Shown here in pieces: positions 1-56,658 of a stretch of 64,000 bases of DNA (positions are counted from its first letter, which is position 1; each line of letters begins with the position of its first letter). A program made the translations under genes and the position numbers. This DNA is from Papaver somniferum (Eukaryota; Streptophyta; Magnoliopsida; Ranunculales; Papaveraceae). Below the pieces are notes generated by a model. That model was not told the DNA's origin. It saw only the letters and a list, made by a program, of their open reading frames with translations, and did not search any database. The stretch is taken from positions 163,014,542 through 163,078,541 of the forward strand of contig NC_039367.1 in the NCBI RefSeq assembly GCF_003573695.1, in the 5' to 3' direction.

Positions 1-433
1 ATTGTAACTTTTAAGTCTTTTTAAGAGGATATTAAATGATTAATGGCACATAAAAGGCTTTCAGGCCGGACATCGTAATTAATTGCAAAGCCCGAGACGG
101 CCCAATAAATTAATCCAGGCCAGGCCGGATGGTCCATGACAGGCCATAACAGACTTACACTATTTCGGGTACAGGCGGGCTCGGACGGGTACAAAGTAGA
201 CCGAGTATTTTCGGGTATTATTTACACCCCTAATTTTAATGCTTTCTCAACAAAAAAGAATATCTAGGAACCCGAAAAGAAATTAGGGGTAGTTTGCCTC
301 TTGTGTCAAAACAGTACCTTTGGAAATTAATTGTAAGAGGCTTGTACAATTATTGGAATTTAAATGTAATTCCGTACCACAACACAAAAAATGCACATTT
401 CATTTTGTTCATCATGATTTGGATTATAAATGT
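1..433. other. Intergenic, no gene seen
   Basis: No coding region, tRNA or clear repeat boundary is supported here. The stretch has several short GC-rich patches built on 'ggcc' and 'cgggt' words (about 60-230) in an AT-rich background. It could be the edge of an older repeat, but no partner copy lies in the window. Confidence 0.5.
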
Positions 434-26245: not shown

Positions 26246-26250
26246 ACTAT

Positions 26251-28817: not shown

Positions 28818-28865
28818 ACACCCCCACACTTATATTTTGCTAGTCTTCGAACAAAACAAAGAATT

Positions 28866-29090
28866 GACCCGCTACACAGCTGGTCATATCATAAGAGAGA
28901 GTTAGACCCGCTACACAGCTGGTCATAAAATGAAAATTTGAAATACCATACCAAGACCCGCTACACAGCTGGTCATAACCCTAAAAATCATAATGATATT
29001 TTATTTTTATTTTTTTAAGACCCGCTACACAACTGATCAAATTTTTTTTTTAATTTTTTTTTTTAGACCCACTAAACAGCTTGTCATAAC
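28866..29090 (-). repeat. Five copies of a 22-bp motif beside the purine tract
   Basis: GACCCGCTACACAGCTGGTC or a close variant occurs at 28866, 28905, 28955, 29019 and 29066, with 39-64 bp spacing and degenerate T-rich spacers. It lies in the interior of the minus-strand element, just upstream of its 3' LTR. Confidence 0.85.
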
Positions 29091-29630
29091 ATTTTTTTTA
29101 TTATTAAAAATTCCTAGCGAAAGTGCCACACCCCCACACTTAAACATTACATTGTCCTCAATGTAATTGAGTCATCCAGCATAAAAATTAAGGCGGGAAA
29201 TTTTAAAATACAATAAAAGTAAAAGATAGAGTGCAGGTAACAAATCTAATGGGTTGACTCCCATGAAGCGAAAGGTATTTTTTTCACTGCTTGCCAGTAG
29301 CACGTTCTCAAACAATGTGGAGTTGGTACCCCAAGGTAAACTGCGAATCATATATATAAAGCCTGAAGAGTTGGGGATCAACCCAACTAATATGATTAGT
29401 CATAAACATGAACCTGCAGTAAGAAATATTAGTACCCAGAGAGATAAAACTGAATTCAATCTTATTTAAAATATAATTCGAACCTTGAATATGAAGTTAA
29501 TCAGGTTCATAGATAATGAGTAAAGATTGTTTAAAGAGTTGAACAGTTTTTGTACTCCCTAAATCAGTTCTAAGTAGCAAGTGGTGCTAACAATAGTTAA
29601 ACGTTTGCACCTAGTGCTAACAGTTTTTGT

Positions 29631-30239
29631 AGAATAAGCCACGTCTCCACCTAACTTTAGCCCCTAGTGGCTTTTTCCTGCTACAAAATGTTAAGTCAAC
29701 GAAAGAGTAGTCCACCATTTTCTTCTCTGTTAAACTAGCAAGTGGTGCTAACAATAGTTAAACGTTTGCATGATAATCCCTAGTGGGTCCTCTTCTTCCG
29801 TGCCATGAAATGATTTAGATTGTGCAACTATAAAGTTATCAGGGCAGATTACTACTTAAGCTCTTTTGGTGCTGTGAGTAATATGAGGGCCGCTGATATA
29901 TATAGAAAGATACCAGGCCGGCTACATTTTGTCGTCGTGGTTGCTGATACATGGAAATACGAGGCCAACCCATTTCATCATTGTGGTTGTTGATACATGG
30001 GAATACCAGGATAGCCCATTTCATCGTTGTGGTCGCTGATACATGGAAGTACCAGGCCAACCATATTTTTCCATTTTCGTCGCAAACACCATTAAGTCTC
30101 ACATTTTGTTGTTTATTCGTTGGATGATCGAATTCACTTGTACTTTCTACAAAAGCACTAAAATAGTATTAGTAACCAAAATATCGAGTCCTAGCTAATA
30201 TAAATATGGGTATAAAATGTAGCACTTACGTGCTTATCA
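29631..30239 (-). repeat. Truncated second LTR of the minus-strand element
   Basis: 609 bp near-identical to 28209-28817, ending TTATCA at the ACTAT target duplication. The outer part is intact; about 1.96 kb of the internal side is missing relative to the other LTR. Confidence 0.8.
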
Positions 30240-30244
30240 ACTAT

Positions 30245-30690
30245 TCTTCGACGGATCCACTACTCCTAACAACGGTACTGGAGGAGCAGGTGTGGTTCTA
30301 GTATCCCCAACCGGTGAAGTATTCTCGCACTCCTTCAAGCTAGACTTCCTTGCACCAACAATTCAGCAGAATATGAAGCCTTTCCCATCGGACTATCCTT
30401 GGCTAAACGAGCTGGAGCCACACGTCTGGAAATAAGAGGGGATTCTAAATTACTTGTCAACCAGGTGAACGGAGTATACGCACTGAAGGAAGTAACCTTG
30501 GCCCCATACAGAGCCGAGGCACAAAAACTGCTAAACTACTTCGCCGATGCGACCATAATGCATATTGGGCGTAGCGGCAACCAACATGTTGATTTCCTAG
30601 CCACACTAGCATCAAAACTGCAATTTGAAGGTTTTGAGGAAACCCTGACAGTGAAGAGACGAACCGTGGCTTCAACATGGATTTCTTAAC
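30245..30690 (+). pseudogene. Tat-type RNase H, second half
   Basis: Continues the frame broken by the insertion: FFDGSTTPN, GTGGAGVVLVSPTGEV, a one-base shift near 30345, then GLSLAKRAGATRLEIRGDSKLLV and VTLAPYRAEAQKLL, a classic gypsy RNase H with the FDGS and GDS active-site Asp residues. It ends at a stop at 30687. Confidence 0.82.
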
Positions 30691-30779
30691 CTGAAGAAGA
30701 TGAAGTTGGCGACTGGAGAACACCAATTATCCAAGAGATTAACAGCTCGCTTTTCCAGGGAAAGGTCAGTCTCAAAACC

Positions 30780-32303
30780 TAATAAAATTTCTTCATGCTC
30801 TGAGGGGTGTTATATCATCGAAATCCAGACGGTTCCTTGTCAAGATGTCTTGGTGAGGGAGAAGCACAACAACAACTCAACCGCGTTCATGATGAAATGT
30901 GCGGACAAACATTAGCGGTAACACTATATCGCCGTTTGCAACGGCTTGGCTATTACTGGACAGAAATGGAGGCTCAATCTTGGTTACTTCAAAAAACCTG
31001 TTCCAACTGTCAAGCGCCGCCACATCAATTAGAAGTTTTCAATATTGGTCACGCTGGGGACTGGCAGGAGACATACATCGGTTACCTTCGCGATGGCATA
31101 CTACCCACCAATAAGAAGGATGCAGCCAAGATAAAACAAAAATCCGAGAGATTCGTATTCCACGAAGGAATCTTATATCGTAAAAGCTTTGGAGGAAGTT
31201 TGCTACTATGTTTGAACGAAGCAGAAATCCCAATCATGCTGAAAGAGATGCACGAAGGAGAACATCAAGGAAAACATAAATTATTTCTTCAGATACACGA
31301 CAAATACTACTGGCCAACCATGGAGGATGCTGCGGCTGTTTTCGTCTAGAGATGCAAAAAATGCCAAATTCACAGAAACCTTATCCATGTATTGTCGACT
31401 CCCCTGCATTCGATAAGCAGTCCGTGGCCCTTTCATAGCTGGGGACTCGACATCATTGGAAAGATTAATCCCCGTCCTCAAAGCATCACGAGTACATAAT
31501 AACAACAACCTAATATTTCACCAAGTGGGTCGAATCCATACCATTACGAGGGACGAATGGAACCACAATCACGGCATTCATTAAGAAGTACATTATCTGC
31601 CGATTTGGCGTGCCTAAAAACATCATCACCGAAAACGACACTCCTGTTGCAAACAAGAAAGTACGGGAGCTACTCGAAGAATACGGAATTAAGCAAGTCT
31701 TCTCCACCGTGTACTACCCCCAAGGGAACCGACAGGCTGAAAGCACCAACAAAACTCTGATCTGAATCCTCAGTCTTACAGTGCATGATAATCCTCAGAC
31801 ATCGCATGAGCAATTGCCAATGGCTCTCTGGGCGTACCATACATCACCAAGGAGTTCCACTGGCACCTCTCCCTACTCCCTCGTCTACGGAGCAGACACC
31901 ATCCTCCCAGCAGAAGTTAAAATCCCATTGGCTAGGATTGCCGAAGAAAGCGGAGTTCGATGGAATGAAGCTGAAGCATTAAGCGCCAGAGTCGCAGAAT
32001 TGGACACTATAGATTCCAAAAGATCCAAGGAGGAAGAACATGCACCAACATACAAAAATAGGGTTTCCGGAGCATATAACAAAACCGTGAAGCCTCAGGT
32101 TTTTCAAGTGGGAGATTTGGTATTAAAGACTGCCAAACACATTCAGCAAGACGCGTCTGCACCAAAATTCTCCACAAAGTGGGAAGGGCCTTATATAGTC
32201 AGGAAAGCGTAAAACACTGGGTATTACAAGGTCATTAAAGAAAACGGAGGAAAACTGGAAGCAGTCATCAACAGAAAGTGGCTTAAGGCATACTACGCCT
32301 GAC
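30780..32303 (+). pseudogene. Tat-type integrase, frameshifted
   Basis: 30807-31349 has the N-terminal integrase region: a VHDEMCG segment, then LQRLGYYWTEM and KTCSNCQ (the HHCC zinc-finger end), and ILYRKSFGG and EGEHQGKHKL, which start a second HHCC-like block. A stop at 31347 and shifts interrupt the catalytic core (WGLDIIGKI with the first Asp near 31450; YYPQGNRQAESTN near 31715 with the Glu). 31781-32212 gives the C-terminal part (LWAYHTSPRSSTGTSPYSLVYG, FQVGDLVLK, KWEGPYIV). After one more stop it ends RKWLKAYYA at 32301. Inactive. Confidence 0.85.
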
Positions 32304-34235: not shown

Positions 34236-34530
34236 ATGCCAAACCTTAGTTCTCATGCTACTGCGCCAAGGCATGCCAACCATGCCAGCTACACCACTAT
34301 GCCAATGGAAAACCATGTTAGCCATATCAACGCGCCAAGGCATGCCAACCATGCCAGCCGCACCACTGTGTCAATGGAAAACCATGCCAGCCACATCTCC
34401 GCGCCAAGGAATGCCAACCATGCCAGCCGCACCACTGTGCCAATGGAAAACCATGCCAGCCACGTTTACTGCGCCAAGGCATGCCATCCGTGCTGGCCAC
34501 ACCATGCGCCAATGACATGCCATGCCACAT
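34236..34530. repeat. ~60-bp tandem repeat in the Tat 3' untranslated region
   Basis: About four units built from 'gcgccaaggcatgccaacc' and 'atgccagccgcaccactg' and 'tgccaatggaaaaccatg' at a period of roughly 60 bp (34262, 34331, 34400, 34469). It is GC-rich against its surroundings. Open frames through it are a by-product of the repeat. Confidence 0.85.
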
Positions 34531-34559
34531 GTGCCAATGACATGCCAACCACCTTGTCG

Positions 34560-35460
34560 CGCCATACCATGCCGACCTTCCTTATGCGGCTACCAAAACG
34601 AAGGCGTGCGACGATCAACGACCACCCTTCAATCCTAAATGCAAATCCTAGCCGTCCAAGGTCGCCAGACAATGCATGGTAACCTTTGGCCAAAAACCCT
34701 AGTTTTGGCCACGCCAAAACGCGCCCAGGCATGCCATGCCACATGTTCCAATGGCATGCCAACCACCTTGCTGTGCCATACCATGCCGGCCTTCCTTATG
34801 CGGCTACCAAAACGAAGGCGTGCGACGATCAACAGCCAACCTTCAATCCTAGATGCAAATCCTAGCCGTCCAAGGTCGCCAGACAACGCATGGTAACCTT
34901 TGGCCCAAAACCCTAGTTTTGGCCACGCCAAACCGCGCCAAGGCATGCCTTGCCACATGTGCCAATGGAATGCCAACCACCTTGTCGCGCCATACCATGC
35001 CGACCTTCCCGATGCGGCTACCAAAACGAAGGCGTGCGGCGATCAACTGCCACCCTTCAATCCTAGATGCAAATCCTAACCGTCCAAGGTTGCCAAACAA
35101 TGCACGGTAACCTTTGGCCCCAAACCATAGTTTTGGCCACGCCAAACCGTGCCAAGGAATGTCATTCCACATGTGCCAATGGCATGCCAACCACCTTGTC
35201 ATGCCACGCCATACCGTCCTTCCCTATGCGGATGCCAAAACGAAGGCCTGCAACGATCAACGGCCACTTTTTCATCTAAGATACAGATCTTAGCCGTCCA
35301 AGGTTACCAGCTAACGCATGTCAACTTTTGGCCCTAGTCTGGTCGCGCCTAAACCATGCCATATTAAAGCCATACCGAGCATTCTTTCATGCCACTGGAT
35401 ACCAAACGAAGGGTTGCAATAATCAATAGCTACCTTTCCTCTTAAGATGCAAAATCTCGA
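34560..35460. repeat. 214-bp tandem repeat in the Tat 3' untranslated region
   Basis: The marker 'ccgtccaaggt' recurs at 34652, 34866, 35080 and about 35294, a constant 214-bp step. A diverged part-unit follows near 35459. Each unit runs from 'ccaccttgtcgcgccatacc' through 'gatgcggctaccaaaacgaa' to 'atggtaacctttggcc' and the smaller 'gccaaccaccttg' words. It lies directly ahead of the 3' LTR. Confidence 0.9.
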
Positions 35461-37770: not shown

Positions 37771-39077
37771 GATGTTAACTAAGATGAACCTATGTAGTAA
37801 GACAGCTCCAATGCACATGTCACTAGCATCACTTTCAACTACAAATGGCTTAGAAAAGTCTAGTAAAGCCAATACAGGTGTAGAGCTCATTGCCTGTTTG
37901 AGTGTCTCAAATGCAGTGGTAGCAGCTGGACTCCAATGGAATGAATTTTCTTGAGAAGATTAGTGAGTGGTTTGCTTATAACTCCATAATTCTGCACAAA
38001 CTTTCTATAATAACCTGTGAGACCCAGAAAACCTCTCAGCTCTTTGATATGTTTGGGTAGTGGCCATGATTGCATACAAGCAATTTTATTTGGGTCAGCA
38101 CAAACACCATTTGATGTGACTATATGACCAAGATACTCTAATGAAGGTTGTACAAAAAAATATTTGGATAACTTGGCAGAAAGTTGATGTTGTCTGAGCA
38201 AAGAGAAAACCATCCCGAGGTGATCCAAATGTTCACTCATGCTTTGACTGTAAATAAGTATATCATAAAAGAAGACCAACACAAATTTTCTTAAAAATGG
38301 CTGAAAGATTTCATTTATAAGTGCTTGGAATTTGGTAGGAGCATTAGTAAGGACAAACGGCATGACCTTAAACTCACAATGGCCTTGATGAGTTCTAAAA
38401 GCTGTATTGTGGATATCTAGATCATGAACTCTGATGTGATGATAGTCATCTCTCAGATCTATCTTGGAAAAGATGATTGAACCATGGAGTTCATCTAGTA
38501 ACTCATCCACAATAGGGATAGGAAACTTTTCCTTGATAGTGATGTTGTTTAGCTTCCTATAATCCACACAAAATCTCCATGAATTATCTTTCTTTTTCAC
38601 AAGAAGTATTAGAGAGGAAAATGGGTTGTGGCTAGGCTGAATTATCCCAGTTTCAAGAACTTCGCTAACCCGTTGTTCAACTACTTCTTTATGCACATAT
38701 GGGCACTTATATGCTCTTTGGTTGACAAGTGATGAGTTGGGTTGTAAAGGGATTGTATGACCCAAACTTCTCTTAGGGTGAAGAGTGGAAGATTCTTCAA
38801 AATATCAGTAAACTCTTGTAATAATGGTAATAAAATGTCAGGAGTTTTAGGGGGTGTTGAGGTGGGGGTTATGGAGAATAAGTGAGCTACCATTCCATGA
38901 GAATGTTTGAGAAATATTTTTTTGACTGCCTCTCCACTCATCATCAAGAAAGAATGTTTTGGAGTAGTGCCCTGTAATGTGATATGCTGGTTTTTGTATG
39001 TAAAAGAAATACTGAGTTTTGCAAAATTAAAGGTCACATCACCTAGTTTCCTTAGCCAATCAGCTCCAAGTACTATG
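37771..39077 (-). pseudogene. Ty3/gypsy RT and RNase H remnant (host of two later insertions)
   Basis: On the minus strand: end of protease/linker (KLSISFTYKNQHITLQG), then RT with IIQPSHNPFSSLILLVKKKDNSWRF, VDYRKLNN, FPIPIVDELLDELHG, FSKIDLRDDYHHIR, the catalytic block reading FFYDILIYS (family F/YVDDILIYS), and LRGFLGLTGYYRKF. The second catalytic Asp pair reads YDI, so one Asp is lost. A frameshift near 37955 is followed by RNase H start FVVESDASDMCIGAVLL, where the element is cut off. Frame breaks near 38765 as well. Integrase and 3' LTR are missing. Confidence 0.85.
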
Positions 39078-40903
39078 TGTTATTTTTAATTTGTTGTCGT
39101 AGTAAATAAGATTCGAACTCTAAGACTTGTGAAGACTAAATTTAAAGGTTTAATGAAAATAATAAAAGAGAGAGTTACTGGGACTAGGATTCCACCGCAT
39201 TCATATCATAGGGATAAATTATTTATTCTCAATAATTATCGCCCAATAAATAAATAAAACATTGACTCTTGTTTTACCAAAGTATATCCTCAAAAAATTA
39301 GTTATAAATCGTAAGCATGGGACATCAAACATTTAAACAAGCATGACCCATCTAATAAAATAATAACTAATTAATTCGAATCATTAATCAATTCAAAATA
39401 AGTGCAAAAGTCATTTAAAAAATAATACAAATGCACCCATGTGTGAAGTTCGGCTTCCTCCGTCGACCCAGTGCAGGGGTTTAGCTTCTCATTATGAAAA
39501 CACACTCATAATATAATTCATAGCTCAAATGGTGTTTTTATTGGAAAAAACTAATAAAATAGAGGTTTGCAACACTTTATAAGTGTTACAGAGTCCACCG
39601 TTACAATGAAATTCAAATACTGTTGCTGAAGCTGCTGTTACAGAAAAACTATATATGGAAACTGTCGAGAAGAACTGTCGCGAAGCTGAGAACATGCGAC
39701 AGTTTTAAACGACATGCCAGAAGTGTAGTTTTTTGTTCTTCGTCTTCTTCTTCTCTGCAGCAGCAGAGAAGTTGCTCTCCAACTCTCTATTTTTCTCCCC
39801 AAACTCTCGATGCACCTCTGAGAAATCTCAGGACCGTTTTTATACCTCAACAACACCAAATCTTCCGCAATAACTTCATATCATCCTCTCTTTAATTCAC
39901 TGCAGTCACGGGAATATTCTTTCCCTTTTTTTTCTTCTCCTCGCACTCCTGTTGCTGTCACATCTCCTTGTTTACCTTCTATACGCTCCTTTTGCAGCCT
40001 TTCACAGTTCAAACACGATCAGGGCACGTATAAATCTTATGCAATCCCGTGAAAATTCCAAACTTCCCTGTTTCACCAAACACTCCCTTTTTTATCTCTT
40101 CACGTATCCTGAATCCTCAAATCTCTCCCAATCTTAATATATATCATTCATGTGAGAATATATTCTTTTACAGCTCACGTACCGTCCATAATTAATTCTA
40201 GAAATTCAAACAAAATAATTGATATCTTTCTTTCTCTGTTTTATGAGATCTTCATTCTCTTTCTTTTCTTTAGGAATCCAATTTGATTACCTTCCCTGTT
40301 TGGATGAAACGGACCGAATTGAATCCAAATCCAAGTCAAACACTACCAAAATCTCGGCCAAAATCTTCCCTGAAAAATACGCAGTTGGGACTCTATCCTT
40401 TTCCGCCAAATTCTGTCCTTTCTATTTTCATCAATCGGTGATTATCCAGCCAAATATAATTGAAACAACGCACATTACCATCTTTGTTTAGTTCCTAGGA
40501 ACAAACCCATTTTATTTCAGCCATTTAGTCTCATCCAAACACCTCCAAAACTGAAACCCTAATTTTGCTGCCATTTTCCCGCCAGAACTGAAATTTGAAT
40601 TGTTGAAGATGAACTCCCCCTTAATATTGTATGGGTGTCCCTTTAGCACTTATCTTATGGGGTGTAAATAGTAAGGAAGGTGGCCCTTAGCAACTGGACG
40701 CCCCTTAGTAATTGAGGTGCCCCTTAACCAACATTGAGAGTCCAAATAACACGTGTCCTCCGAGTGCAAATAACAGTTTTTCGAGCCAATTCTCCACAAG
40801 AGCTTATTATTCCAAAAACAACTAAAACAAATTTATTAGTGATAAAAATAGTCCCAGCTAATGTATTTATGGGTGAAAATACGTCGCACTTTCGTGCTTA
40901 TCA
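39078..40903 (-). mobile_element. Solo LTR inserted in the gypsy protease
   Basis: A single 1826-bp LTR starting TGTTATTTTTAATTTG and ending GTGCTTATCA is flanked by the perfect 5-bp duplication CTATG (39073-39077 and 40904-40908). No interior remains, so the element was removed by LTR-LTR recombination. Removing the LTR rejoins the protease reading GGCD.. to the following linker. Ends and several internal words match the LTRs at 26251 and 36079. No gene inside. Confidence 0.9.
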
Positions 40904-42226
40904 CTATGTCACAACCCCCTAGTGGTAGAACTCTTAAAGTTTCCATGAATTGGTGTCCTTGCATACTCCATTGTAGCTTAGAACAAATAGCTGAACTGGA
41001 TGTTTGCTCCCCATTTGCAATAGTGACCATCATAGGTGAAGTTGGTGTAATGGAGCATTTAAGTGAAGAAACCAAGGTACTATCAATGAAGTTGGTGGTG
41101 CTACCTGTGTCAATAAGTACAAAAACAGTCTTCTTGTTGATTACATCAGGAATTATGATAGTATCACCAGTAACTGAGCCCGTGAGAGCATGAAGAGATA
41201 CTTCAACATCAGATTGGACTGGGGATTCAGGTGCTTCTTCAAAGATTTCTTCCTCCTCTTCTGTCTCATGTGATTCAGTAGACTCAATGTGTAACACGTA
41301 GATTTTTTTGTTTCCCTTTACAGAAGTGTCCAGGTTTGTATACCACATCACAATTATCACAGAGCCCTTGAGCTCTTCTCTTGTTCATTTCCTCCTGAGA
41401 GAGTCTTTTAATGATATGGGTTGTGTTTGTAGGTTTTGGAGGAGAGGTGAAAAAAGATTTTGGGGGTGGAAGGGCTAGATTTAGGCGAAGTGATAATATG
41501 CTTAGGAGGTAAAGGACTAGGAGAGTAAGGTCTATGTGAGTTTGAATATGGAGTGATATATCTGGTTAATTGTTTAGGTGATGCATTAGTTAACTGAAGT
41601 TTTTGTTCTTGTAATCTGGCTAAGGAAAAAGCATCAGCTAGAGTTTGTGGGTGAAACATAGACATAGATTTGCCAATATCATCCTTCAACCCACTAAGAA
41701 AAATCATAACAAAGTATGATTCACTCAAGGAAGGGTTCATACGTAGCATCAAAGCTTTGAGTGACTCAAAATCCTCATAGTATTCATCGACCGAAGAGGT
41801 TTGGACTAATTTATTAAAGCTACCAACAAAATTTTCCAACACGGGATTTTCGAATCTAACACATAGATGAAGAGATAAATCCTTCCATGTAATTCTATTG
41901 CGATTAACTTGAAAATTTAGAAACCATTTCTCAGCCTTACCTTCCAGATAGATGGCAGCTATGTCTACCTTTCTGTGTTCTTCAATATCATTGAGTTGAA
42001 AATAACGTTCACTTTTCTGAATCCAACCTCTGGGGTTATCTCCATCAAATCATGGAATATCGATCTTAGGAATGCGATGATGCTGATTAAAGAAGTTATA
42101 ATGATGAGAATAACTTTGGTGTTCATCATCCTGGTGATGTGAACCACCTGTATCTTCAGTACGATGATTATTGTTGGATTTACTGAGTAGCTGAATCAGA
42201 TTGCGATTATTTTCTTGTAGACTTTC
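40904..42226 (-). pseudogene. Gypsy gag C-part and protease of the same host element
   Basis: Minus strand. Gag segments include WIQKSERYFQLNDIEEH, AAIYLEGKAEKWF and LENFVGSFNKLVQTSSVDEYYEDFE, then LSGLKDDIGKSM and LADAFSLARLQEQ. These are the standard retrotransposon gag region. The aspartic protease follows: VFVLIDTGSTTNFID with the DTG active site and LPLGGCDIV. A stop is present near 42050 and frame changes near 41400. It continues across the insertion at 42226/50415 into the gag N-terminus. Confidence 0.85.
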
Positions 42227-42545
42227 TGATGCAGCATCTTGATACCTTTCCTAATTTTGGTCTTTTTAGATTTCCTTTTTCTTTTATAATTCCTTTTCTT
42301 AGATGTTTGATTTTTAGGAAAGATAGGTTCATATAAATAAGGGATTGTAAGATAGTTTTATTCATTCAGTTTTAAGAGATAATACACTAGAGTTTTCTCT
42401 AAAGCCTTGCATTGATTTGATTCTGTCATCAATTCAAGAGCCTTGCATCGAATTTGATTGAACTCTTCGATTCAAGAAGTCAGGTCTCTAGAAATTTAAC
42501 CTATATTTCTAGATTGAGCTGAATCACCGTTGATACGCTGCGCCA
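42227..42545 (+). repeat. 5' LTR of the composite element
   Basis: Starts TGATGCAGCATCTTGATACC, has a TATA-like 'catataaataagg' near 42330, and ends GCTGCGCCA. It differs from the 3' LTR (50096-50414) at only about one position (gcagc against gcaac), so the insertion is young. Confidence 0.93.
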
Positions 42546-42547
42546 GG

Positions 42548-42559
42548 TTGGTATCAGAG
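42548..42559 (+). other. tRNA-Met primer-binding site of the composite element
   Basis: TTGGTATCAGAG lies two bases after the 5' LTR and matches the initiator Met-tRNA primer site used by many plant LTR elements. Confidence 0.85.
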
Positions 42560-42573
42560 ACAGGCTACGTTCT

Positions 42574-45525
42574 TTGTCTGTCACTACAATGGTGAGACCT
42601 CGTCGAACACCAGTTCGTACTGCAGCAGAAATCAATCGTGACGCCATTACTGAGCTACAAGCCCAGATGGCTTCCATCACAACTGCCCTCCAAACCCTTC
42701 TGGTTCAACAACCAGCACCAGCCGTACGCGAGCATGTTGCTCACGTTAACAGTACCAGAGACGATGTTGATGACGAAGAAAACCCGTTTGCAGACGACGT
42801 TAATCCCTTTGCTCCTCTACACACCAACCGTACTCTAGCACCAGATAACGTACCAAACGCAGCAGCTCATATTCATTGGGAATCGGGTTTCAAAACCGAG
42901 ATACCAGAGTTTCATGGAAATTCTTCAGCTGAAGAACTGCTCGATTGGATAGTCACGGTAGAAGAAATCCTAGAATTCAAACGAGTTCCAATGGATCAAT
43001 GTGTTCCTGTCTTAACAATGCGTTTTCGTGGCAGAGCAGCTGCCTGGTGGACACAATTGAAGACAACTCGTGCACGTCTTGGAAAACCAAAGATTATGTC
43101 ATGGGATAAACTTTCATCAAAACTTAAGAAAACATTCTTGCCTTACAATTATGACCAGCTAATGTTTCAGCGTCTCCATACCATCCGTCAGGGAAATCGA
43201 TCTGTGGCTGACTACTCTACTGAATTTTTTTTACTTCTCAATCGAGTTGATATACAAGACTCTGAGCGTCAACTGGTGGCACGGTTTACAGCAGGATTAC
43301 GACAACAGATCCAACACACAATCAATCTCTTCCATCCATCAACACTGTCAGAAGCACATCAGCAAGCTTTGACTATTGAGGCGCAAACTAAATTATCCTT
43401 CTCATCATGGTCTACTGTTCGTTCTTCTCGACCAAATCAGACTCCGACTGCGACAGATGACGCTATATCTGTCAAAGCAGACACACCCATTGTTCCAGCT
43501 CTTGACACTCGACAAACTCAACCAAACTCAATTCGTTGCTTTTCTTGTGGAGATTTAGGTCATCGACAGTCTTCCTGCCCCACTAGAAACAGAAGAGGCC
43601 TCCTCCTTGACACTGCTGGTAATGACGTTGAAGTAATTTACGATGAGGAAACTACAGAGCCACAGGATGAAGTAGAGGTTCTTAAAGCAGATAGCGGACC
43701 AGCATTAATGTTGCGACGTGTGTGTTTAGCTCCGCGTGGAACAGATATCAACCCTCAACGACATAATCTTTTTCACTCAAAGTGTACTATTGGAGGCAAG
43801 GTGTGTAACTTCATAATTGATTCTGGTAGTAGTGAAAACGTCATTGCTGAGGAGGTTGTAACCAAACTTCAATTATCAACAGAACTACATCCTAACCCCT
43901 ACAAGTTGGCATGGTTGGATCGGAATACTGATGTACTCATAACTCGACGAGCATTGATTTCTTTTTCGGTGGGAGATTCGTATAAGGATCAAATTCATTG
44001 TGATATTGCTCCAATGGATGCTTGCCATCTACTTTTAGGACGTCCTTGGTTATCTGATCTTCGAGTACAACATGATGGCTATCGTAATACCTACAGTTTT
44101 CGTTACAATAATCGCAATTTCACTCTACAACCTTCTTTGCCCGAGAAACAACATACACCATCAGCTCCAGTCCTTTTCTTGCAGCAAAAAGCTTTTGAAG
44201 AAACACTTCGCGAAGAAAGATATGTTCTAATATTGATCAATTCGGTTGTCAGAAAGTCTTTGCCGTCACCTCCAGAACATTTTCAAAGACTATTGGAAGA
44301 GTTTCAGGATGTTTTTCCTAATGAGTTACCACCCGGCCTTCCTCCACTCAGAGATATTCAACACCATATTGATCTAATTCCAGATGCTGTTCTTCCTAAT
44401 AGAGCTCATTATCGTATGAGTCCGAGTGAGCATGAAGAACTTAGACGACAGGTTGAGGAACTTGTGTTGAAGGGATATTTACGTGAAAGCTTGAGTCCGT
44501 GTGCAGTCCCAGCTTTGCTTATACCAAAGAAGGATGGATCTTGGAGGATGTGTGTCGACAGCCGTGCTAAATAAAATTACAGTACGCTATAGATTTCCCA
44601 TTCCCCGTCTCGACGATCTATTAGATCAAATTGGAGCTGCAACGATTTTCTCTAAACTGGATCTTCGAAGTGGTTATCATCAGATACGGATCCGCCCAGG
44701 AGATGAATGGAAGACGGCTTTTAAAACTCGCGAAGGACTTTTTGAATGGCTTGTCATGCCCTTTGGCTTGTCCAATGCACCAAGCACTTTCATGCGTGTT
44801 ATGAATCAATCTCTTCGGCCCTTCATAGGTAAGTTTGTAGTTGTTTATTTTGATGATATTCTCATATTTAGTAAGTCCTTCACTGAACATCTTGCACACT
44901 TAAGAGAAGTACTTCTTTTTCTCCGTCGAGATCGACTATTTGCCACACAAAAAAAGTGTGAGTTTGGCTCTCCTGAGGTTCACTTCCTTGGATACATCGT
45001 CTCAGCACAAGGTCTAGCCGTCGATCCGAGCAAGGTAGAAGCAATAAAATCTTGGCCTACTCCTACTACTTTATCTGAAACTCGAAGTTTTCATGGTCTA
45101 GCATCTTTTTATCGAAGATTTGTGCCGCAATTTAGCAGTTTGATGGCACCTATCACTGATTGTATTCGTCATGATAGTGTCTTCACTTGGACTGCCGAAG
45201 CAACTACAGCTTTTGAGATCATTAAGACGAAATTGTTATCAGCACCTATTCTAGCTCTTCCAGATTTTACTCAAGTTTTTGAACTTCATAGTGATGCTTC
45301 TAAGTTGGGCATTGGTGCTGTCTTGAGCCAACGCAACAAACCTATTGCCTTCTTCAGTGAAAAACTGGCTGGAGCTCGTCTACGTTATAGTACTTACGAT
45401 GTGGAATTTTATGCAGTGGTTCAAGCAATCAAACACTGGAGACATTATCTTTTCCATAAAGAATTTGTTCTTTACACAGATCATGATGCTTTAAAACACC
45501 TGAACAGTCAAGATAAAATCTCAGC
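42574..45525 (+). pseudogene. gag-protease-RT-RNase H, forward half of the composite
   Basis: 42574-44574 is open for 666 codons: gag (PEFHGNSSAEELLDWI, RFRGRAAAWWTQLK), a CCHC knuckle CFSCGDLGHRQSSC (about residue 320), the protease site FIIDSGSSENVI (DSG in place of DTG), then the RT start [13 protein letters not shown] 2-bp deletion near 44567 relative to the inverted copy shifts the frame and gives a stop. RT resumes in frame from 44575: [34 protein letters not shown] (catalytic FDD), then RNase H with [10 protein letters not shown] and [11 protein letters not shown]. It is cut at SQDKISA (45525). Lineage looks chromovirus-like; no chromodomain is visible. Polyprotein function is replication of the element; this copy is broken. 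Confidence 0.9.
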
Positions 45526-45594
45526 TCACTTAAGAGAAGTACTTCTTGTTCTCCGTCGAGATCGACTATTTGCCACACAAAAAAAGTGTGAGTT
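45526..45594 (+). repeat. Displaced 69-bp RT piece at a template-switch junction
   Basis: After 'atctcagctc' the sequence jumps back to a stretch matching 44898-44963 (acttaagagaagtacttctt to aaaaaagtgtgagtt) and then into the LTR. It carries 'cttgttctcc', as the inverted copy does, where the forward copy has 'ctttttctcc'. So it was copied from a template like the inverted half, not from the adjacent forward half. Confidence 0.85.
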
Positions 45595-46164
45595 GCAGCA
45601 TCTTGATACCTTTCCTAATTTTGGTCTTTTTAGATTTCCTTTTTCTTTTATAATTCCTTTTCTTAGATGTTTGATTTTTAGGAAAGATAGGTTCATATAA
45701 ATAAGGGATTGTAAGATAGTTTTATTCATTCAGTTTTAAGAGATAATACACTAGAGTTTTCTCTAAAGCCTTGCATTGATTTGATTCTGTCATCAATTCA
45801 AGAGCCTTGCATCGAATTTGATTGAACTCTTCGATTCAAGAAGTCAGGTGGCGCAGCGTATCAACGGTGATTCAGCTCAATCTAGAAATATAGGTTAAAT
45901 TTCTAGAGACCTGACTTCTTGAATCGAAGAGTTCAATCAAATTCGATGCAAGGCTCTTGAATTGATGACAGAATCAAATCAATGCAAGGCTTTAGAGAAA
46001 ACTCTAGTGTATTATCTCTTAAAACTGAATGAATAAAACTATCTTACAATCCCTTATTTATATGAACCTATCTTTCCTAAAAATCAAACATCTAAGAAAA
46101 GGAATTATAAAAGAAAAAGGAAATCTAAAAAGACCAAAATTAGGAAAGGTATCAAGATGCTGCA
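45594..46164. repeat. LTR-LTR palindrome, 256-bp arms and 59-bp loop
   Basis: A forward LTR lacking its first 3 and last 63 bases (45594-45849) is followed without spacer by a complete LTR in reverse (45849-46167). The arms 45594-45849 and 45909-46164 are inverted repeats of each other; 45850-45908 forms the loop. The loop is the end of the LTR that the forward arm lacks. This would form a long hairpin if single-stranded. Confidence 0.92.
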
Positions 46165-47317
46165 TCAGGTCCCGCCGGGGAAGAAGGATTCGACCACGAA
46201 TCTGGAACTGGGTCTGGTGGAACAAAACGTGATAAATAACGAACATTGAAGACATCCGAAGTGTTGATGTTTGCTGGAAGTTGTAGGCGATAAGCATTGT
46301 CATTAATTCGTTCCACAACTGTGACAGGACCTATTTTCTTTGCCTTGAGTTTATTATAAGCATGAGCCGGCATTCGATCTTTAGTGAGAAATACCCAAAC
46401 TTGATCACCTACTTCGAAGAGAACACGACGGCGACGAGAATCAGACGCAGCTTTGTACTTTGAGGAGGATGACTCGAGATTGGTAATAACCTTCGTATGA
46501 ATCGTATGAATGTTGTCTACAAAATCATCAGCTACACCATGAAGACGTGTACGGTCTGGAAGAGTAGATAAATCCAAAGGACCACGAGGGAGAAGACCAT
46601 AAACGACCTGAAATGGACTGAACCCTGAACTTCTATTAAGTGAATGATTATGAGCAAACTCTGCTTGAGGAAGCTTTGAGTCCCAAGTTTTAATAGAATC
46701 TCCCACAAGGCAGCGAAGCAAATTCCCCAAAGATCTATTGGTCACTTCTGTTTGACCGTCCGTTTGAGGATGATAAGCGGAACTCATGTCAAGGCTGGTT
46801 CCTAGTAATTTCCATAAAGACCTCCAAAAATGTCCTAAGAATCGAGAATCCCGATCAGAAACGATGGAAGTTGGCAATCCATGGAGTCTGTAAACCTCTC
46901 AAAAAAAAGTGTTGCGACTTGGACTGCATCTGAAGTCTTTTTACATGGAATGAAGTGCACCATCTTGGAGAAACGATCAACAATGACAAAGATTGAATCG
47001 AAACCCTTTTGTGTACGAGGAAGACCCATCACAAAGTCCATACTGATGTCCGTCCATGGTTGTGTTGGAATAGGGAGAGGAAGGTATAGACCGGCATTCG
47101 TGGAATGACCTTTTGATGTCTGACACACTGTGCAACGTTCGACAAAACGCTCAACATCACGTCTCAATGCAGGCCAAAAATAAGACTGAGAAAGTAAATA
47201 CAACGTCCGGTCGCGACCAATGTGTCCTTCATTATGTGTTTCAGCAACAAGTTTAAGACGGAGGCTGCAGTCTGGAATGCAAAGACGACTGTCTCGAAAA
47301 AGAAAGCCATCGTGCAT
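46152..47317 (-). pseudogene. Integrase, inverted half of the composite
   Basis: Minus strand. HNEGHIGRDRTLYLLSQSYFWP and CTVCQTSKG form the zinc-binding N-terminus. The core has DISMDFVMGLPRT, FSKMVHFIP, then after a one-base shift in a T run near 46900, SIVSDRDSRFLG and SSAYHPQTDGQTEVTNRSL with the catalytic Asp and Glu. The C-terminus has FEVGDQVWVFL, KLKAKKIGPVTV and DVFNVRYLSRFVPPDP, and ends five codons into the LTR (stop at 46152). A coding end that runs into the LTR is known for CRM-type elements. Would join element DNA to the genome; broken by the shift. Confidence 0.88.
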
Positions 47318-47380
47318 AGTGAAATCAGAGAAAGACCATTCTGTACGTCAAGAAGAACTCGACCAAAGAAGTCATCAGAC

Positions 47381-48821
47381 TCATAAATCAGCAAAGGTGG
47401 AAAATCCCGGAACTGATACATGAAGAACGCTCAGCAAAGAATGGCGACGACTCAGGGCATCAGCAACTCGATTAGAAACACCTGACGTGTGTTTGATAAC
47501 AAACGTAAATTGTTGCAAGTAAGATATCCATGATGCGTGACGAGCTGAGATTTTATCTTGACTGTTCAGGTGTTTTAAAGCATCATGATCTGTGTAAAGA
47601 ACAAATTCTTTATGGAAAAGATAATGTCTCCAGTGTTTGATTGCTTGAACCACTGCATAAAATTCCACATCGTAAGTACTATAACGTAGACGAGCTCCAG
47701 CCAGTTTTTCACTGAAGAAGGCAATAGGTTTGTTGCGTTGGCTCAAGACAGCACCAATGCCCAACTTAGAAGCATCACTATGAAGTTCAAAAACTTGAGT
47801 AAAATCTGGAAGAGCTAGAATAGGTGCTGATAACAATTTCGTCTTAATGATCTCAAAAGCTGTAGTTGCTTCGGCAGTCCAAGTGAAGACACTATCATGA
47901 CGAATACAATCAGTGATAGGTGCCATCAAACTGCTAAATTGCGGCACAAATCTTCGATAAAAAGATGCTAGACCATGAAAACTTCGAGTTTCAGATAAAG
48001 TAGTAGGAGTAGGCCAAGATTTTATTGCTTCTACCTTGCTCGGATCGACGGCTAGACCTTGTGCTGAGACGATGTATCCAAGGAAGTGAACCTCAGGAGA
48101 GCCAAACTCACACTTTTTTGTGTGGCAAATAGTCGATCTCGACGGAGAACAAGAAGTACTCTCTTAAGTGTGCAAGATGTTCAGTGAAGGACTTACTAAA
48201 TATGAGAATATCATCAAAATAAACAACTACAAACTTACCTATGAAGGGCCGAAGAGATTGATTCATAACACGCATGAAAGTGCTTGGTGCATTGGACAAG
48301 CCAAAGGGCATGACAAGCCATTCAAAAAGTCCTTCGCGAGTTTTAAAAGCCGTCTTCCATTCATCTCCTGGGCGGATCCGTATCTGATGATAACCACTTC
48401 GAAGATCCAGTTTAGAGAAAATCGTTGCAGCTCCAATTTGATCTAATAGATCGTCGAGACGGGGAATGGGAAATCTATAGCGTACTGTAATTTTATTTAT
48501 AGCACGGCTGTCGACACACATCCTCCAAGATCCATCCTTCTTTGGTATAAGCAAAGCTGGGACTGCACACGGACTCAAGCTTTCACGTAAATATCCCTTC
48601 AACACAAGTTCCTCAACCTGTCGTCTAAGTTCTTCATGCTCACTCGGACTCATACGATAATGAGCTCTATTAGGAAGAACAACATCTGGAATTAGATCAA
48701 TATGGTGTTGAATATCTCTGAGTGGAGGAAGGGGGTGGTAACTCATTAGGAAAAACATCCTGAAACTCTTCCAATAGTCTTTGAAAATGTTCTGGAGGTG
48801 ACGGCAAAGACTTTCTGACAA
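47381..48821 (-). pseudogene. RT-RNase H, inverted half of the composite
   Basis: 48821-48108 holds RT with the intact junction [10 protein letters not shown] (where the forward copy has a 2-bp deletion), [25 protein letters not shown], then one base lost near 48163 shifts the frame (LREYFLF). 47947-47381 carries RNase H ([47 protein letters not shown]) past the point where the forward copy was cut, ending TSGVSNRVADALSRR. Confidence 0.88.
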
Positions 48822-49869
48822 CCGAATTGATCAATATTAGAACATATCTTTCTTCGCGAAGTGTTTCTTCAAAAGCTTTTTGCTGCAAGAAAAGGACTGG
48901 AGCTGATGGTGTATGTTGTTTCTCGGGCAAAGAAGGTTGTAGAGTGAAATTGCGATTATTGTAACGAAAACTGTAGGTATTACGATAGCCATCATGTTGT
49001 ACTCGAAGATCAGATAACCAAGGACGTCCTAAAAGTAGATGGCAAGCATCCATTGGAGCAATATCACAATGAATTTGATCCTTATACGAATCTCCCACCG
49101 AAAAAGAAATCAATGCTCGTCGAGTTATGAGTACATCAGTATTCCGATCCAACCATGCCAACTTGTAGGGGTTAGGATGTAGTTCTGTTGATAATTGAAG
49201 TTTGGTTACAACCTCCTCAGCAATGACGTTTTCACTACTACCAGAATCAATTATGAAGTTACACACCTTGCCTCCAATAGTACACTTTGAGTGAAAAAAA
49301 TTATGTCGTTGAGGGTTGATATCTGTTCCACGCGGAGCTAAACACACACGTCGCAACATTAATGCTGGTCCGCTATCTGCTTTAAGAACCTCTACTTCAT
49401 CCTGTGGCTCTGTAGTTTCCTCATCGTAAATTACTTCAACGTCATTACCAGCAGTGTCAAGGAGGAGGCCTCTTCTGTTTCTAGTGGGGCAGGAAGACTG
49501 TCGATGACCTAAATCTCCACAAGAAAAGCAACGAATTGAGTTTGGTCGAGTTTGTCGAGTGTCAAGAGCTGGAACAATGGGTGTGTCTGCTTTGACAGAT
49601 ATAGCGTCATCTGTCGCAGTCGGAGTCTGATTTGGTCGAGAAGAACGAACAGTAGACCATGATGAGAAGGATAATTTAGTTTGCGCCTCAATAGTCAAAG
49701 CTTGCTGATGTGCTTCTGACAGTGTTGATGGATGGAAGAGATTGATTGTGTGTTGGATCTGTTGTCGTAATCCTGCTGTAAACCGTGCCACCAGTTGACG
49801 CTCAGAGTCTTGTATATCAACTCGATTGAGAAGTAAAAAAAATTCAGTAGAGTAGTCAGCCACAGATCG
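48697..49869 (-). pseudogene. gag C-part and protease, inverted half of the composite
   Basis: Minus strand from SVADYSTEFFLLLNRVD through the knuckle CFSCGDLGHRQSSC and the protease site FIIDSGSSENVI to the RT linker. It is frameshifted near 48735 (NELPPPSS where the forward copy reads NELPPGLPPL) by loss of two bases. Nearly identical to 43195-44340. The gag N-terminus, primer site and LTR that should follow are absent; instead the junction to forward integrase lies at 49870-49900. Confidence 0.9.
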
Positions 49870-50095
49870 ATGAAACATTAGCTGAAACATTAGCTGGTCA
49901 TGCTTATAATAAACTCAAGGCAAAGAAAATAGGTCCTGTCACAGTTGTGGAACGAATTAATGACAATGCTTATCGCCTACAACTTCCAGCAAACATCAAC
50001 ACTTCGGATGTCTTCAATGTTCGTTATTTATCACGTTTTGTTCCACCAGACCCAGTTCCAGATTCGTGGTCGAATCCTTCTTCCCCGGCGGGACC
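49870..50095 (+). repeat. Junction and integrase C-terminus, forward orientation
   Basis: 49870-49898 contains a doubled 12-mer (tgaaacattagc twice), which derives from gag (43165-43178 reversed). It then switches at a short shared word (gct.gtcat / ggctcat) to the integrase C-terminus 'gcttataataaactcaagg'. The remaining 197 bp repeat 46168-46363 in the opposite orientation and lead directly into the right LTR. Confidence 0.88.
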
Positions 50096-50414
50096 TGATG
50101 CAACATCTTGATACCTTTCCTAATTTTGGTCTTTTTAGATTTCCTTTTTCTTTTATAATTCCTTTTCTTAGATGTTTGATTTTTAGGAAAGATAGGTTCA
50201 TATAAATAAGGGATTGTAAGATAGTTTTATTCATTCAGTTTTAAGAGATAATACACTAGAGTTTTCTCTAAAGCCTTGCATTGATTTGATTCTGTCATCA
50301 ATTCAAGAGCCTTGCATCGAATTTGATTGAACTCTTCGATTCAAGAAGTCAGGTCTCTAGAAATTTAACCTATATTTCTAGATTGAGCTGAATCACCGTT
50401 GATACGCTGCGCCA
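50096..50414 (+). repeat. 3' LTR of the composite element
   Basis: 319 bp, starting TGATGCAACATC and ending GCTGCGCCA, then the target duplicate CTTTC (50415-50419). Confidence 0.93.
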
Positions 50415-50545
50415 CTTTCCTTGAAACTATCCTTTACATTATCAATTTGTTGAGTAAGATCTGTGGAAAGATTTTTGAATTCTGATCGGAGTTGATTGAT
50501 AGTGGTTTCATTAGTTGTGGTTTTACCAAGGTCTTTGAGCGTCAT
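50415..50545 (-). pseudogene. Gag N-terminus of the interrupted minus-strand gypsy element
   Basis: From the ATG at 50545 (minus strand) it reads MTLKDLGKTTTN, then INQLRSEFKNLSTDLTQQID and VKDSFKES, a coiled-coil-like gag start. Joined across the composite insertion it continues SESLQENNRNLIQ at 42220. This confirms that the composite landed inside one gag gene. Confidence 0.8.
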
Positions 50546-53823: not shown

Positions 53824-55790
53824 ACCTAGGATTCAAATTATTCTGATATCATCTCAAATGCATATAAAGTGTCTAACGACCTGGATCTTTCTCAGAAACT
53901 CTGTCATTCTAGACACAAACTGTCTAGATGGAATAGAGAGTATTTTGGGCGTAAAGAATTTCATGTCAGGCATTTAAGAGATCATCTTTCTACTCTCCAA
54001 ACACAACCGTATAGTGAGGATATATCCAATAAGATACATCACACTATTCAAAGTTTAAATCATTGGAAAAAGGTGGAAGCAGATTTTTGGCATCAAAAAT
54101 CAAGGGATAAGCGGTTAAGAGATTCAGATAATAACACCGCCTATTTTCATACTCTGGCAAATAGAAGGAAAGCAAGGAATCATATTTCAGCTCTTAGAGA
54201 TGAGCATGGCATCGACATCATTCCTATAATGACCTTCAAAACCTTCTTACCAATCATTTTTCTTCCATTGCTAGGTCAACTAATCCTGTTTTTTCAGAAC
54301 ATTCTTTTGACATCATCTCCCCAATTATTACCCAACAAGAGAACAATTCCTTAGTTTTTATGCCTACATAAGAAAAAATCTTAAATGTCTTAAGAAGTAT
54401 GCCGAGTTGGAATTCGCCGGGACCAGATAGATTCCTAACTGGGTTATACTTATCACAATCGGCAACGTTGGGAAATGACATTGTGCAATTAGTGCAACAA
54501 TTTTTCATTAATAAAACAATGCCTGCTTTCATAAACCAAATTGTACCTGTCTGATACCAAAAACTCAGCATCCTAAGACACCTAGTGATTACAAGCCAAT
54601 TAGTCTTTTTAACATCACTTACAAAATAATCTCTAAGTTTATAGTTACAAGAATGATGCCACTGATGGAGAAAATAATCTCTCCAACACAAGTTGCTTTT
54701 GTCCCAAAAAGGTACATCAATGATAATATAGTTATGGCTCATGAATTAATCCACTCAATGAAGAAATCTAAGAAGCAGCAAGGGTTAGTGGCACTTTAAT
54801 TGGACATGTTGAAGTCATTCGATAGGGTAGAATGGGAGTTTTTTATTAAAATGATGACATCTTTAGGATTCTGTGAAGAATGGTGTACTATCATTTATCA
54901 ATGTATCTCGACAACGTCTATCTAAATACATTTAAATGGTAGTAATTTCAAGTCATACATTCCTTCTCGAGGACTGAGGCAAGGGGATCCATTATCCCCT
55001 TACCTATTTATGATATCAATAGAGTATCTAGGTATATCCTTAATGAGTGCAGAGAACCAAAACTTGTTGATGGAATTCAGGTGGTCAAGAACTCAATTTC
55101 TATTAATCACCTTCTATTCGTAGACGACTCCATTCTTTTCTTTCAAGCAGATAGCAAAAGCATTGCTCAAGTTAAATTATGTTTACAGAATTTCAGTAAT
55201 GTCTCTAGACAACTGATAAATTTTTCAAAATCTTCAGCTTATGTTACGGGTGATCTCTCTCATAATGCTAAGTTATCTATCACACAGAAACTTGGGGTTA
55301 AACAACTTTGTACTTCTGATAAATACTTAGGTTTACCAATTCTTTTGGGGAGATCTAAGAAACAATCTTTTAGCTCAGTCCAAAATTCTTATGAAAACAG
55401 ATTCCAAGGTTGGTGCTTCAAAACTCTGAACCAAGCAGCTAGATCCACTGTGGTTAAGTCGGTACTAAACTCAATTCCTACCCATTATATGATTCCTTTC
55501 AATATTCCAAAAAAACTTATTAGGAAACTTGATTCGGCTCAAAGGAAGTTTTGGTGGGGACATAAATCCAACAGGGGATTAAATTTCATTGCATGGAACT
55601 CTCCGTGTAGTACGAAAGAAGAAGGTGGACTATATTTTAGGAATCTAGAGCATTTTAACATGGCATTAATTGCCAAGCTAACTTGGAGGTTATGCAATGA
55701 AGAAGATAAACCTTGGGTTCAACTTATGAAATCAAAGTATTCCCCCTCATTGCAGCTTTCTGCATCTTCAAGACTTCCCTAATAATTCGT
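53824..55790 (+). pseudogene. LINE reverse transcriptase
   Basis: 53869-54354 carries the linker (WNREYFGRKE, KVEADFWHQKSRD, NTAYFHTLANRRKARN). RT blocks: KHPKTPSDYKPISLFN, TQVAFVPKRYINDNIV, a LDMLKSFDRVEW core (stop just before it at 54797), LRQGDPLSPYLF and LLFVDDSILFF (catalytic FVDD). The 55081-55782 segment continues to KYLGLPILLGR, RKFWWGH and GGLYFRN, typical of the C-terminal RT region of plant LINEs. At least four stops or shifts. Confidence 0.9.
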
Positions 55791-56658
55791 CCTGGATTTG
55801 GAAGGGTCTGGAGGTGGGTCTTAATTATGTAAGAAGCTTTCATAGATGGGATGTTCGTAGAGGTAACAAAATTTTAGTATGGTATGATAAATGGGTCAGA
55901 GGCTTAAATTCACCACCTACTCCTAGGATACTTTTAGAGAACCAGCTAGGATTGTCCTTGTTTCTGACCTGATGCTAGATAATCCAAGGAGATGGAATGT
56001 ACAATTAATCTGGTATCTGTTTCCAGATAATACAGCAGCACTAATCTTGCAGATGAACTTAGTTCAACAAGTAAATGATAGGCTTATATGGGAACCAAGT
56101 AGGAATGGGGAATTTTCAGTAAAGTCAGCATATAAAGTCTAATCTAACATGAACCCTAATGTTAGGAAAACTTCTGGTATCAACTGGAAAAGTTTATGGA
56201 GAATTGATGCACCTCATAAAGTTAAGTTATTTATCTGGAAGTGTCTAAAAGGAATAGTGTCAACTAGATTCATTCTTAATAAATATAATCCTTCTTTAGA
56301 CACACTATGTCCTAGATGTTCTCAAGCAGAAGAAACATTGCAACACCTACTATTAGATTGTGATCATTCAAGATCAGTGTGGTTATCAATGAACATAAAT
56401 GTGGCAGCACTTCAACAACAACAAATTTCACTCTCTGATTGGATCTCTAGTTGGTTTCAGACTTGTACTGATTTGAATAACCAACATAGAGATTATTGGA
56501 TTTTGAAGCTCGTGATCTCGACTTGGTATATTTGGAAAAACAGCTGTTCAAAGTTGTTTCAAAATAAAAATCAAAATGTTCTCTGCACAACTCACTTGAT
56601 TAATAACATGCTCAAGCAATGCTCACCTGAGGTAGACAGTAAAAAAATAATAAAATAG
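55791..56658 (+). pseudogene. LINE zinc-binding RT-linked region
   Basis: After a stop at 55781 the sequence reads FLNNSSWIWKGLE and VRGNKILVWYDKWV in another frame. Then 56149-56658 has WKSLWRIDAPHKVKLFIWKC and LCPRCSQAEETLQHLLLDCDH, the C-x2-C...H...C zinc-binding segment (zf-RVT) of plant LINEs. It ends at a stop at 56656. Confidence 0.85.

What the first reader, a model, noticed from the sequence alone, without database searches (positions are those of the whole stretch)
42227..50414. A scrambled, partly inverted gypsy element that integrated as one piece
Seen: one perfect CTTTC target duplication, near-identical outer LTRs, and an interior ordered gag-RH(+), RT scrap(+), partial LTR(+), full LTR(-), IN-to-gag(-), IN end(+), LTR(+). 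The halves differ at very few bases. Known: integrase leaves 5-bp duplications only at the ends of the molecule it inserts. Inference: the rearrangement existed in the cDNA, made by strand or template switching or by self-integration between two co-packaged templates. Old nested insertion or ectopic recombination would leave extra or mismatched target duplications.
Basis: partly seen in the sequence, partly recalled or inferred. Interest (0 to 1): 0.82.

Follow-up and report, generated by a model that had tools for sequence, protein, structure and literature searches.

The report
Scrambled retrotransposon carrying self-integration scar
A young plant Ty3/gypsy retrotransposon copy holds, inside itself, most of a second copy turned backwards, joined in a way that suggests the element's DNA first inserted into itself and was then patched into another copy, so a supposed dead-end molecule may have ended up in a chromosome.

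Summary
The layout is real. One 8,188-bp composite of a plant (poppy-like) Ty3/gypsy element lies between perfect CTTTC duplications. It interrupts the gag of another gypsy element, whose frame reopens (105 codons) across the joined flanks, so both ends entered together. Inside are an inverted, largely complete second copy, a 68-bp RT scrap and a 256-bp LTR piece. No proper inner target duplication was found. I refine the mechanism. At 45849 the inverted LTR stops exactly at its CA end, without the 3-nt GGT spacer that unprocessed cDNA should carry. That fits integrase strand transfer into an LTR, most simply one-ended inverting self-integration. Two other junctions carry templated fillers, one with a 4-nt overlap, and look like end-joining into a second copy that lost ~1.18 kb; the 1-nt overlaps are chance level. 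The claim that the rearrangement must predate integration does not follow: a chromosomal break that captured such a cDNA leaves the same single duplication. I favour pre-integration assembly, unproven. Evidence for two RNA templates is weak. The genome-wide search did not complete (11 tries), so the canonical element, sister copies and read support are unchecked.

The parts
42222..42226 (.). target-site duplication CTTTC, left
42227..42545 (+). outer 5' LTR of molecule A (TG...CA, 319 bp)
42546..42548 (+). 3-nt spacer GGT between LTR end and primer binding site; expected on unprocessed cDNA ends
   Evidence: role inferred
42549..42564 (+). primer binding site resembling tRNA-iMet complement
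   Evidence: sequence; tRNA identity recalled, not searched
42574..45527 (+). gag, protease, RT, RNase H of molecule A, frame broken near 44570 (2-nt TA indel relative to the inverted half)
45527..45594 (+). 68-bp RT filler copied from the region of 44897-44964 (one difference; 1-nt overlap at each edge)
45594..45849 (+). LTR positions 4-259, read as the 5' LTR fragment of molecule B
   Evidence: assignment to B inferred
45849..46167 (-). full LTR of molecule B, its CA terminus joined exactly to the partial LTR (1-nt ambiguity)
46168..49871 (-). inverted IN, RNase H, RT, protease, gag of molecule B (gag ends at the equivalent of 43196; frames broken)
49872..49901 (-). gag-derived filler: 27 nt skipped, then a 12-nt tandem repeat, then 6 nt
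49898..50095 (+). integrase end and polypurine-tract region of molecule A (TCAT shared with gag filler)
50096..50414 (+). outer 3' LTR of molecule A
50415..50419 (.). target-site duplication CTTTC, right
50420..50545 (-). first ~42 codons of the interrupted host gypsy gag (start codon inferred; continues at 42221 downwards)
40836..42221 (-). rest of the interrupted host gypsy gag and protease (target of the insertion; decayed, with stops)

Best explanation
Two closely related cDNAs of one Ty3/gypsy family met before integration. In molecule B, integrase processed the U5 end to CA and joined it to the antisense strand of an LTR at position 258/259, most simply B's own 5' LTR. This gave an inverted, one-ended self-integration product: LTR(4-259) followed by everything else backwards. 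The two ends of that product, a U3 terminus trimmed by 3-4 nt and a break in gag, were joined by Pol theta-like end-joining, with fillers copied from RT and gag, into a break in molecule A that lost about 1.18 kb between RNase H and the integrase end. A's intact outer ends were then integrated into another gypsy element's gag with one CTTTC duplication. Shown: the layout, the junctions, the single TSD and the reopened target frame. Inferred: the enzymes, that the partial LTR is B's own, and the order (joining before integration).
For: Exact CA end without GGT at 45849, while the only canonical LTR-PBS junction in the window carries GGT. If the eight breakpoint sides fell at random, at least one would land on an LTR terminus in 1.2% of simulations, and a second within 4 nt as well in 0.04% (post hoc). 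Fillers: a 68-bp RT copy at J1/J2, and at J4 a 27-nt skip, a 12-nt tandem repeat and a 4-nt overlap. Single TSD and a host gag frame open for 105 codons across the joined flanks, against 14 and 8 in the other two minus frames. All LTR pieces 0-1 differences apart, so the pieces are about the same age. Literature: autointegration yields deletion or inversion circles (PMC2644782, passages); [quoted passage not shown]
Against: Only one of the two integrase joints is present, so the 5-bp duplication that a complete self-integration makes cannot be seen. The 1-nt ambiguity, and a cDNA end trimmed by exactly 3 nt and joined by ordinary NHEJ, allow the same joint. The 1-nt overlaps at J1-J3 are what random joins give (0 nt in 55%, 1 nt in 28%); 4 nt or more comes up in about 1.8% of random joins, and there are four joins. 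Nothing dates the joining before integration. One locus, no read support, GGT spacer known from one boundary only.
Confidence: 0.45

Rival explanations
1. Post-integration capture: an ordinary element A was already in the chromosome; a break inside it was repaired by capturing an extrachromosomal cDNA B of the same family (itself perhaps self-integrated), with filler DNA.
For: Leaves the same single TSD and the same end-joining junctions; it needs no integrase bound to a repaired molecule.
Against: Needs a chance break in a very young copy (outer LTRs differ at 1 of 319) to be met by same-family cDNA; no age difference between A and B is visible.
Confidence: 0.27
2. Reverse-transcriptase template and strand switching alone, between co-packaged RNAs or between RNA and minus-strand DNA, made the whole scramble in the particle.
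For: Template-switching complexes with TSDs and matching outer LTRs are reported (PMC1950507, whole main text read); 4-nt overlap at one jump; one A/B site (A/V) is also variable among poppy relatives.
Against: Two changes of synthesis polarity are needed; at 45849 the jump would have to occur exactly at the LTR's CA end, before the GGT and tRNA-primer positions; three of four joins have no more than chance overlap.
Confidence: 0.15
3. Assembly artefact: reads from different copies, or a fold-back read, were joined.
For: Repeats of several kb and long inverted arms; no read data available here.
Against: TSD, reopened target frame, half-specific differences and a junction-specific 12-nt tandem filler are not expected from a simple mis-join or fold-back.
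Confidence: 0.08
4. Nested insertion of a second element followed by deletions, or ectopic recombination between copies.
For: Nesting is common in plant LTR elements (PMC6911290, start of abstract in listing), and this one is itself nested in another gypsy. One 5-mer, TCAGG, recurs around the inverted LTR if the right copy may overlap the LTR by 3 bases.
Against: No 5-mer match in the proper positions beside five inner blocks; the inverted LTR abuts an LTR fragment of the same family with no other DNA; matching outer TSD and continuous target exclude recombination between two loci.
Confidence: 0.05

Closest known systems
Template-switching complex LTR retrotransposons of Triticeae, rice and maize (Sabot and Schulman 2007, PMC1950507)
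   Same: More than one element unit between one TSD pair, outer LTRs nearly identical, read as one integration.
   Different: Those have two complete cores with a shared internal LTR; here the second unit is inverted and truncated and has non-homologous junctions (for the paper).
Autointegration (self-integration) products of retroviruses and Ty1
   Same: LTR CA end joined to a site inside element DNA, with inversion.
   Different: Known products are deletion or inversion circles called nonproductive (PMC2644782, passages); here such a joint sits in a chromosome, and only one of the two ends is seen.
Truncated and chimeric EVD/ATCOPIA21 eccDNA and insertions in Arabidopsis mutants (PMC10462705)
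   Same: Rearranged LTR-retrotransposon insertions with two LTRs, some with TSDs.
   Different: The passages seen (12 of 13 places) describe truncations and gene chimeras, not an inverted second copy; that paper leaves open whether such forms arise in the particle, after integration or from eccDNA.

Membership tests
Ty3/gypsy LTR retrotransposon | gag, protease, RT, RNase H, then integrase order | tested here: met
   Pfam matches on both strands; the order through integrase is seen in the inverted half, where the rve core (20.0 vs cut-off 32.6) and gag capsid (20.6 vs 29.1) pieces fall below their cut-offs, the ORFs being broken or truncated
Ty3/gypsy LTR retrotransposon | TG...CA LTRs, primer binding site, 5-bp TSD | tested here: met
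   PBS tRNA identity recalled
Template-switching complex (PMC1950507) | flanking TSD and highly similar outer LTRs | tested here: met
Template-switching complex (PMC1950507) | an internal LTR shared by two complete core sequences | tested here: not met
   inner full LTR and second core are inverted, both cores incomplete
Autointegration product | integrase-processed CA terminus joined to an internal site | tested here: met
   45849, 1-nt ambiguity; that integrase made it is inferred
Autointegration product | second LTR end joined 5 bp away, giving an internal 5-bp duplication or a circle | tested here: not met
   other end absent; flanking 5-mers do not match in the proper positions
Microhomology/Pol theta end-joining junctions | microhomology above chance at the joins | tested here: inconclusive
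   overlaps 1, 1, 1, 4 nt; 1 nt is chance level, 4 nt or more about 1.8% per random join
Microhomology/Pol theta end-joining junctions | templated fillers | tested here: met
   68-bp RT copy and gag-derived 30-nt filler with a 12-nt tandem repeat
Microhomology/Pol theta end-joining junctions | dependence on Pol theta | not testable with these tools
   needs a mutant plant

The most novel reading that the evidence does not exclude
Self-integrated retrotransposon cDNA, regarded as suicidal, can be rescued by host alternative end-joining onto a sister cDNA and enter the chromosome by ordinary integration, leaving a readable scar: a processed LTR terminus inside an inverted LTR pair.
Probability: 0.4. 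Interest if true: 0.62.

Novelty: new variant of a known kind. Interest (0 to 1): 0.48.

Why it matters
If right, the locus is a chromosomal fossil of autointegration, so the frequency of that pathway could be counted in any long-read plant genome by searching for inverted LTR pairs joined at an exact CA end. It bears on the question left open in PMC10462705 (passages) of whether rearranged insertions arise in the particle, after integration, or from extrachromosomal DNA.

Tried and rejected
Whole-genome search for the canonical element and sister composites: the tool did not answer on any of 11 identical requests, so nothing was learned. A 28-nt LTR-end/PBS pattern in viral contigs gave 0 matches, as expected for a plant element. 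ARAGORN found 0 tRNA genes in the window, so the primer tRNA could not be compared here. A first regex for the F/V site found nothing because of a bad pattern (240 proteins loaded); repeated by alignment. In one search the Q/R site index was off by one (it tallies the neighbouring residue); the R of the relatives was read from the printed context of six rows (five poppy, one Brassica). One search printed some inner flanking 5-mers one base off; one search repeats them.

Rejected: two-template origin as shown fact. Polarity: the RT F (half A) looks private (V in 65, F in 1 of the 120 proteins); the gag F (half B) looks private (L in 59, F in 1 of 71 that aligned well enough); Q (half A) is R in the six rows shown. 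The A/V site is mixed: A in 70, V in 3 of 99 aligned overall, but V in 3, A in 1 and T in 1 of the five poppy rows shown, the one hint of two templates. Rejected: nested insertion, solo-LTR insertion and ectopic recombination (no proper inner TSDs, continuous target).

Among the entries listed, judged by title and start of abstract only, none describes it; one search listed 25 of 379, one search found 0. The library lacks most subscription journals, and Garfinkel 2006 was not held. So absence from print is not shown.

Full report
What is there. The window is plant DNA: the gag/protease part of the element is 80-90% identical to Papaver somniferum proteins (best four rows), and the relatives listed with a species name are plants (many rows have no name). 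The element is a Ty3/gypsy retrotransposon with gag, protease, RT, RNase H and integrase domains, 319-bp TG...CA LTRs and a primer binding site that I recognise from memory as tRNA-iMet type. From the pieces, a complete family member would be about 5.0 kb long (length only).

The composite. Between CTTTC at 42222-42226 and 50415-50419 lie, in order: LTR(+), gag to RNase H (+) ending at 45527, a 68-bp RT scrap (+), LTR positions 4-259 (+), a full LTR (-) at 45849-46167, integrase to gag (-) ending at 49871, a 30-nt gag-derived filler, the integrase end (+) from 49898, and LTR(+). The outer element, A, lacks about 1,176 bp between RNase H and the integrase end.

One insertion. The flanks belong to another, decayed gypsy element on the minus strand (RT 37887-38765, protease 40836-41360, gag 41408-41842). 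Joining the flanks and dropping the composite with one CTTTC gives a minus-strand frame open for 105 codons across the join (47 before, 58 after), against 14 and 8 in the other two minus frames; after one stop the same frame leads on into that gag. The two outer ends therefore went into one site, which excludes recombination between two loci. Directly beside five inner blocks no 5-mers match; with each flank slid by up to 3 bases one match appears (TCAGG around the inverted LTR), but its right copy takes three bases from the LTR itself.

The informative junction. In the only canonical LTR-to-primer-site boundary in the window, GGT separates the LTR's CA from the primer binding site. The U5 end of newly made cDNA should carry those three bases until integrase removes them (established retroviral biochemistry; the 3-nt length is inferred from this one boundary). 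At 45849 the inverted LTR ends exactly at CA and is joined straight to LTR position 258/259. Reverse transcriptase jumping would not be expected to stop there, and ligation of an unprocessed end would leave GGT unless exactly trimmed. Integrase strand transfer predicts it. If the target LTR was the same molecule's own 5' LTR, the product is an LTR fragment followed by the rest of the element backwards, which is what 45594-49871 shows. Under random breakpoints, at least one of eight sides hits an LTR terminus in 1.2% of simulations, and a second within 4 nt in 0.04%. This is a post hoc figure, and linear cDNA ends joined by NHEJ would raise it.

The other junctions. J1 at 45527: 1-nt overlap. 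J2 at 45594: 1-nt overlap, with the LTR lacking its first 3-4 nt. J4 at 49898-49901: 4-nt overlap (TCAT), preceded by a 27-nt skip and a 12-nt tandem repeat of gag. Overlaps of 1 nt are what random joins give; 4 nt or more occurs in about 1.8% of random joins. The case for Pol theta-type end-joining therefore rests on the two templated fillers more than on microhomology; that such fillers are typical of it is general knowledge. Host alt-EJ is reported to act on retrotransposon cDNA in Drosophila and mouse (as cited in PMC12786077, passages).

Before or after integration. It does not: a break in a resident copy repaired with an extrachromosomal cDNA also leaves it. I favour joining before integration because related cDNAs are together at that time and all pieces look equally young (LTR differences 0, 0 and 1). 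No allele or sister copy was available to decide.

One template or two. The halves differ by 4 substitutions and 4 indel events over 2,334 columns. The RT scrap matches the inverted half at the G/T substitution and the plus half at the two single-A indels; at that substitution it carries the commonest state of relatives (V in 65 of 120 homologues, F in 1). Two gag differences look private to one half. At the A/V site both states occur in poppy relatives, the only hint that two different parents were involved; across all 99 aligned proteins A is the commonest.

Against known kinds. Template-switching complexes (PMC1950507, main text read in two parts) share the single TSD and matching outer LTRs but have two complete cores and a shared internal LTR. 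Autointegration gives circles (PMC2644782, passages; PMC9694575, passages, for LTR-internal circles in a fungus). Rearranged new insertions occur in Arabidopsis mutants (PMC10462705, passages), with origin left open. This is best called a new variant of a known kind. I rate interest at 0.48: one well-defined locus with a testable signature, but without genome-wide counts or read support.

Noticed in passing
37887-42221 and 50420-50545: A decayed gypsy element on the minus strand (RT, protease, gag) is the target; the composite sits in the N-terminal part of its gag.
   Followed up: yes
42536-42545: The last 10 bases of the LTR look complementary to the D-stem side of plant initiator tRNA-Met as I recall it, next to a primer site for the same tRNA; possibly an extended primer interaction. 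tRNA sequence recalled, from no call.
   Followed up: no
53869-56658: Fragments that look like a non-LTR (LINE) element: zf-RVT domain at 56149-56658; the neighbouring ORFs at 53869 and 55081 had no Pfam match, so the assignment is inferred.
   Followed up: no
25165-32212: RT at 25165-25902 and an integrase zinc-binding domain at 30807-31349 on the plus strand, probably pieces of another gypsy-type element (inferred from order; 31781-32212 had no Pfam match).
   Followed up: no
34258-35334: Tandem arrays with 69-bp and 214-bp units, both containing a GCGCCAAGGCATGCCA stretch.
   Followed up: no
28503-28640 and 29937-30062: Two short arrays with nearly the same 46-bp unit (rotated), starts about 1.4 kb apart.
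   Followed up: no
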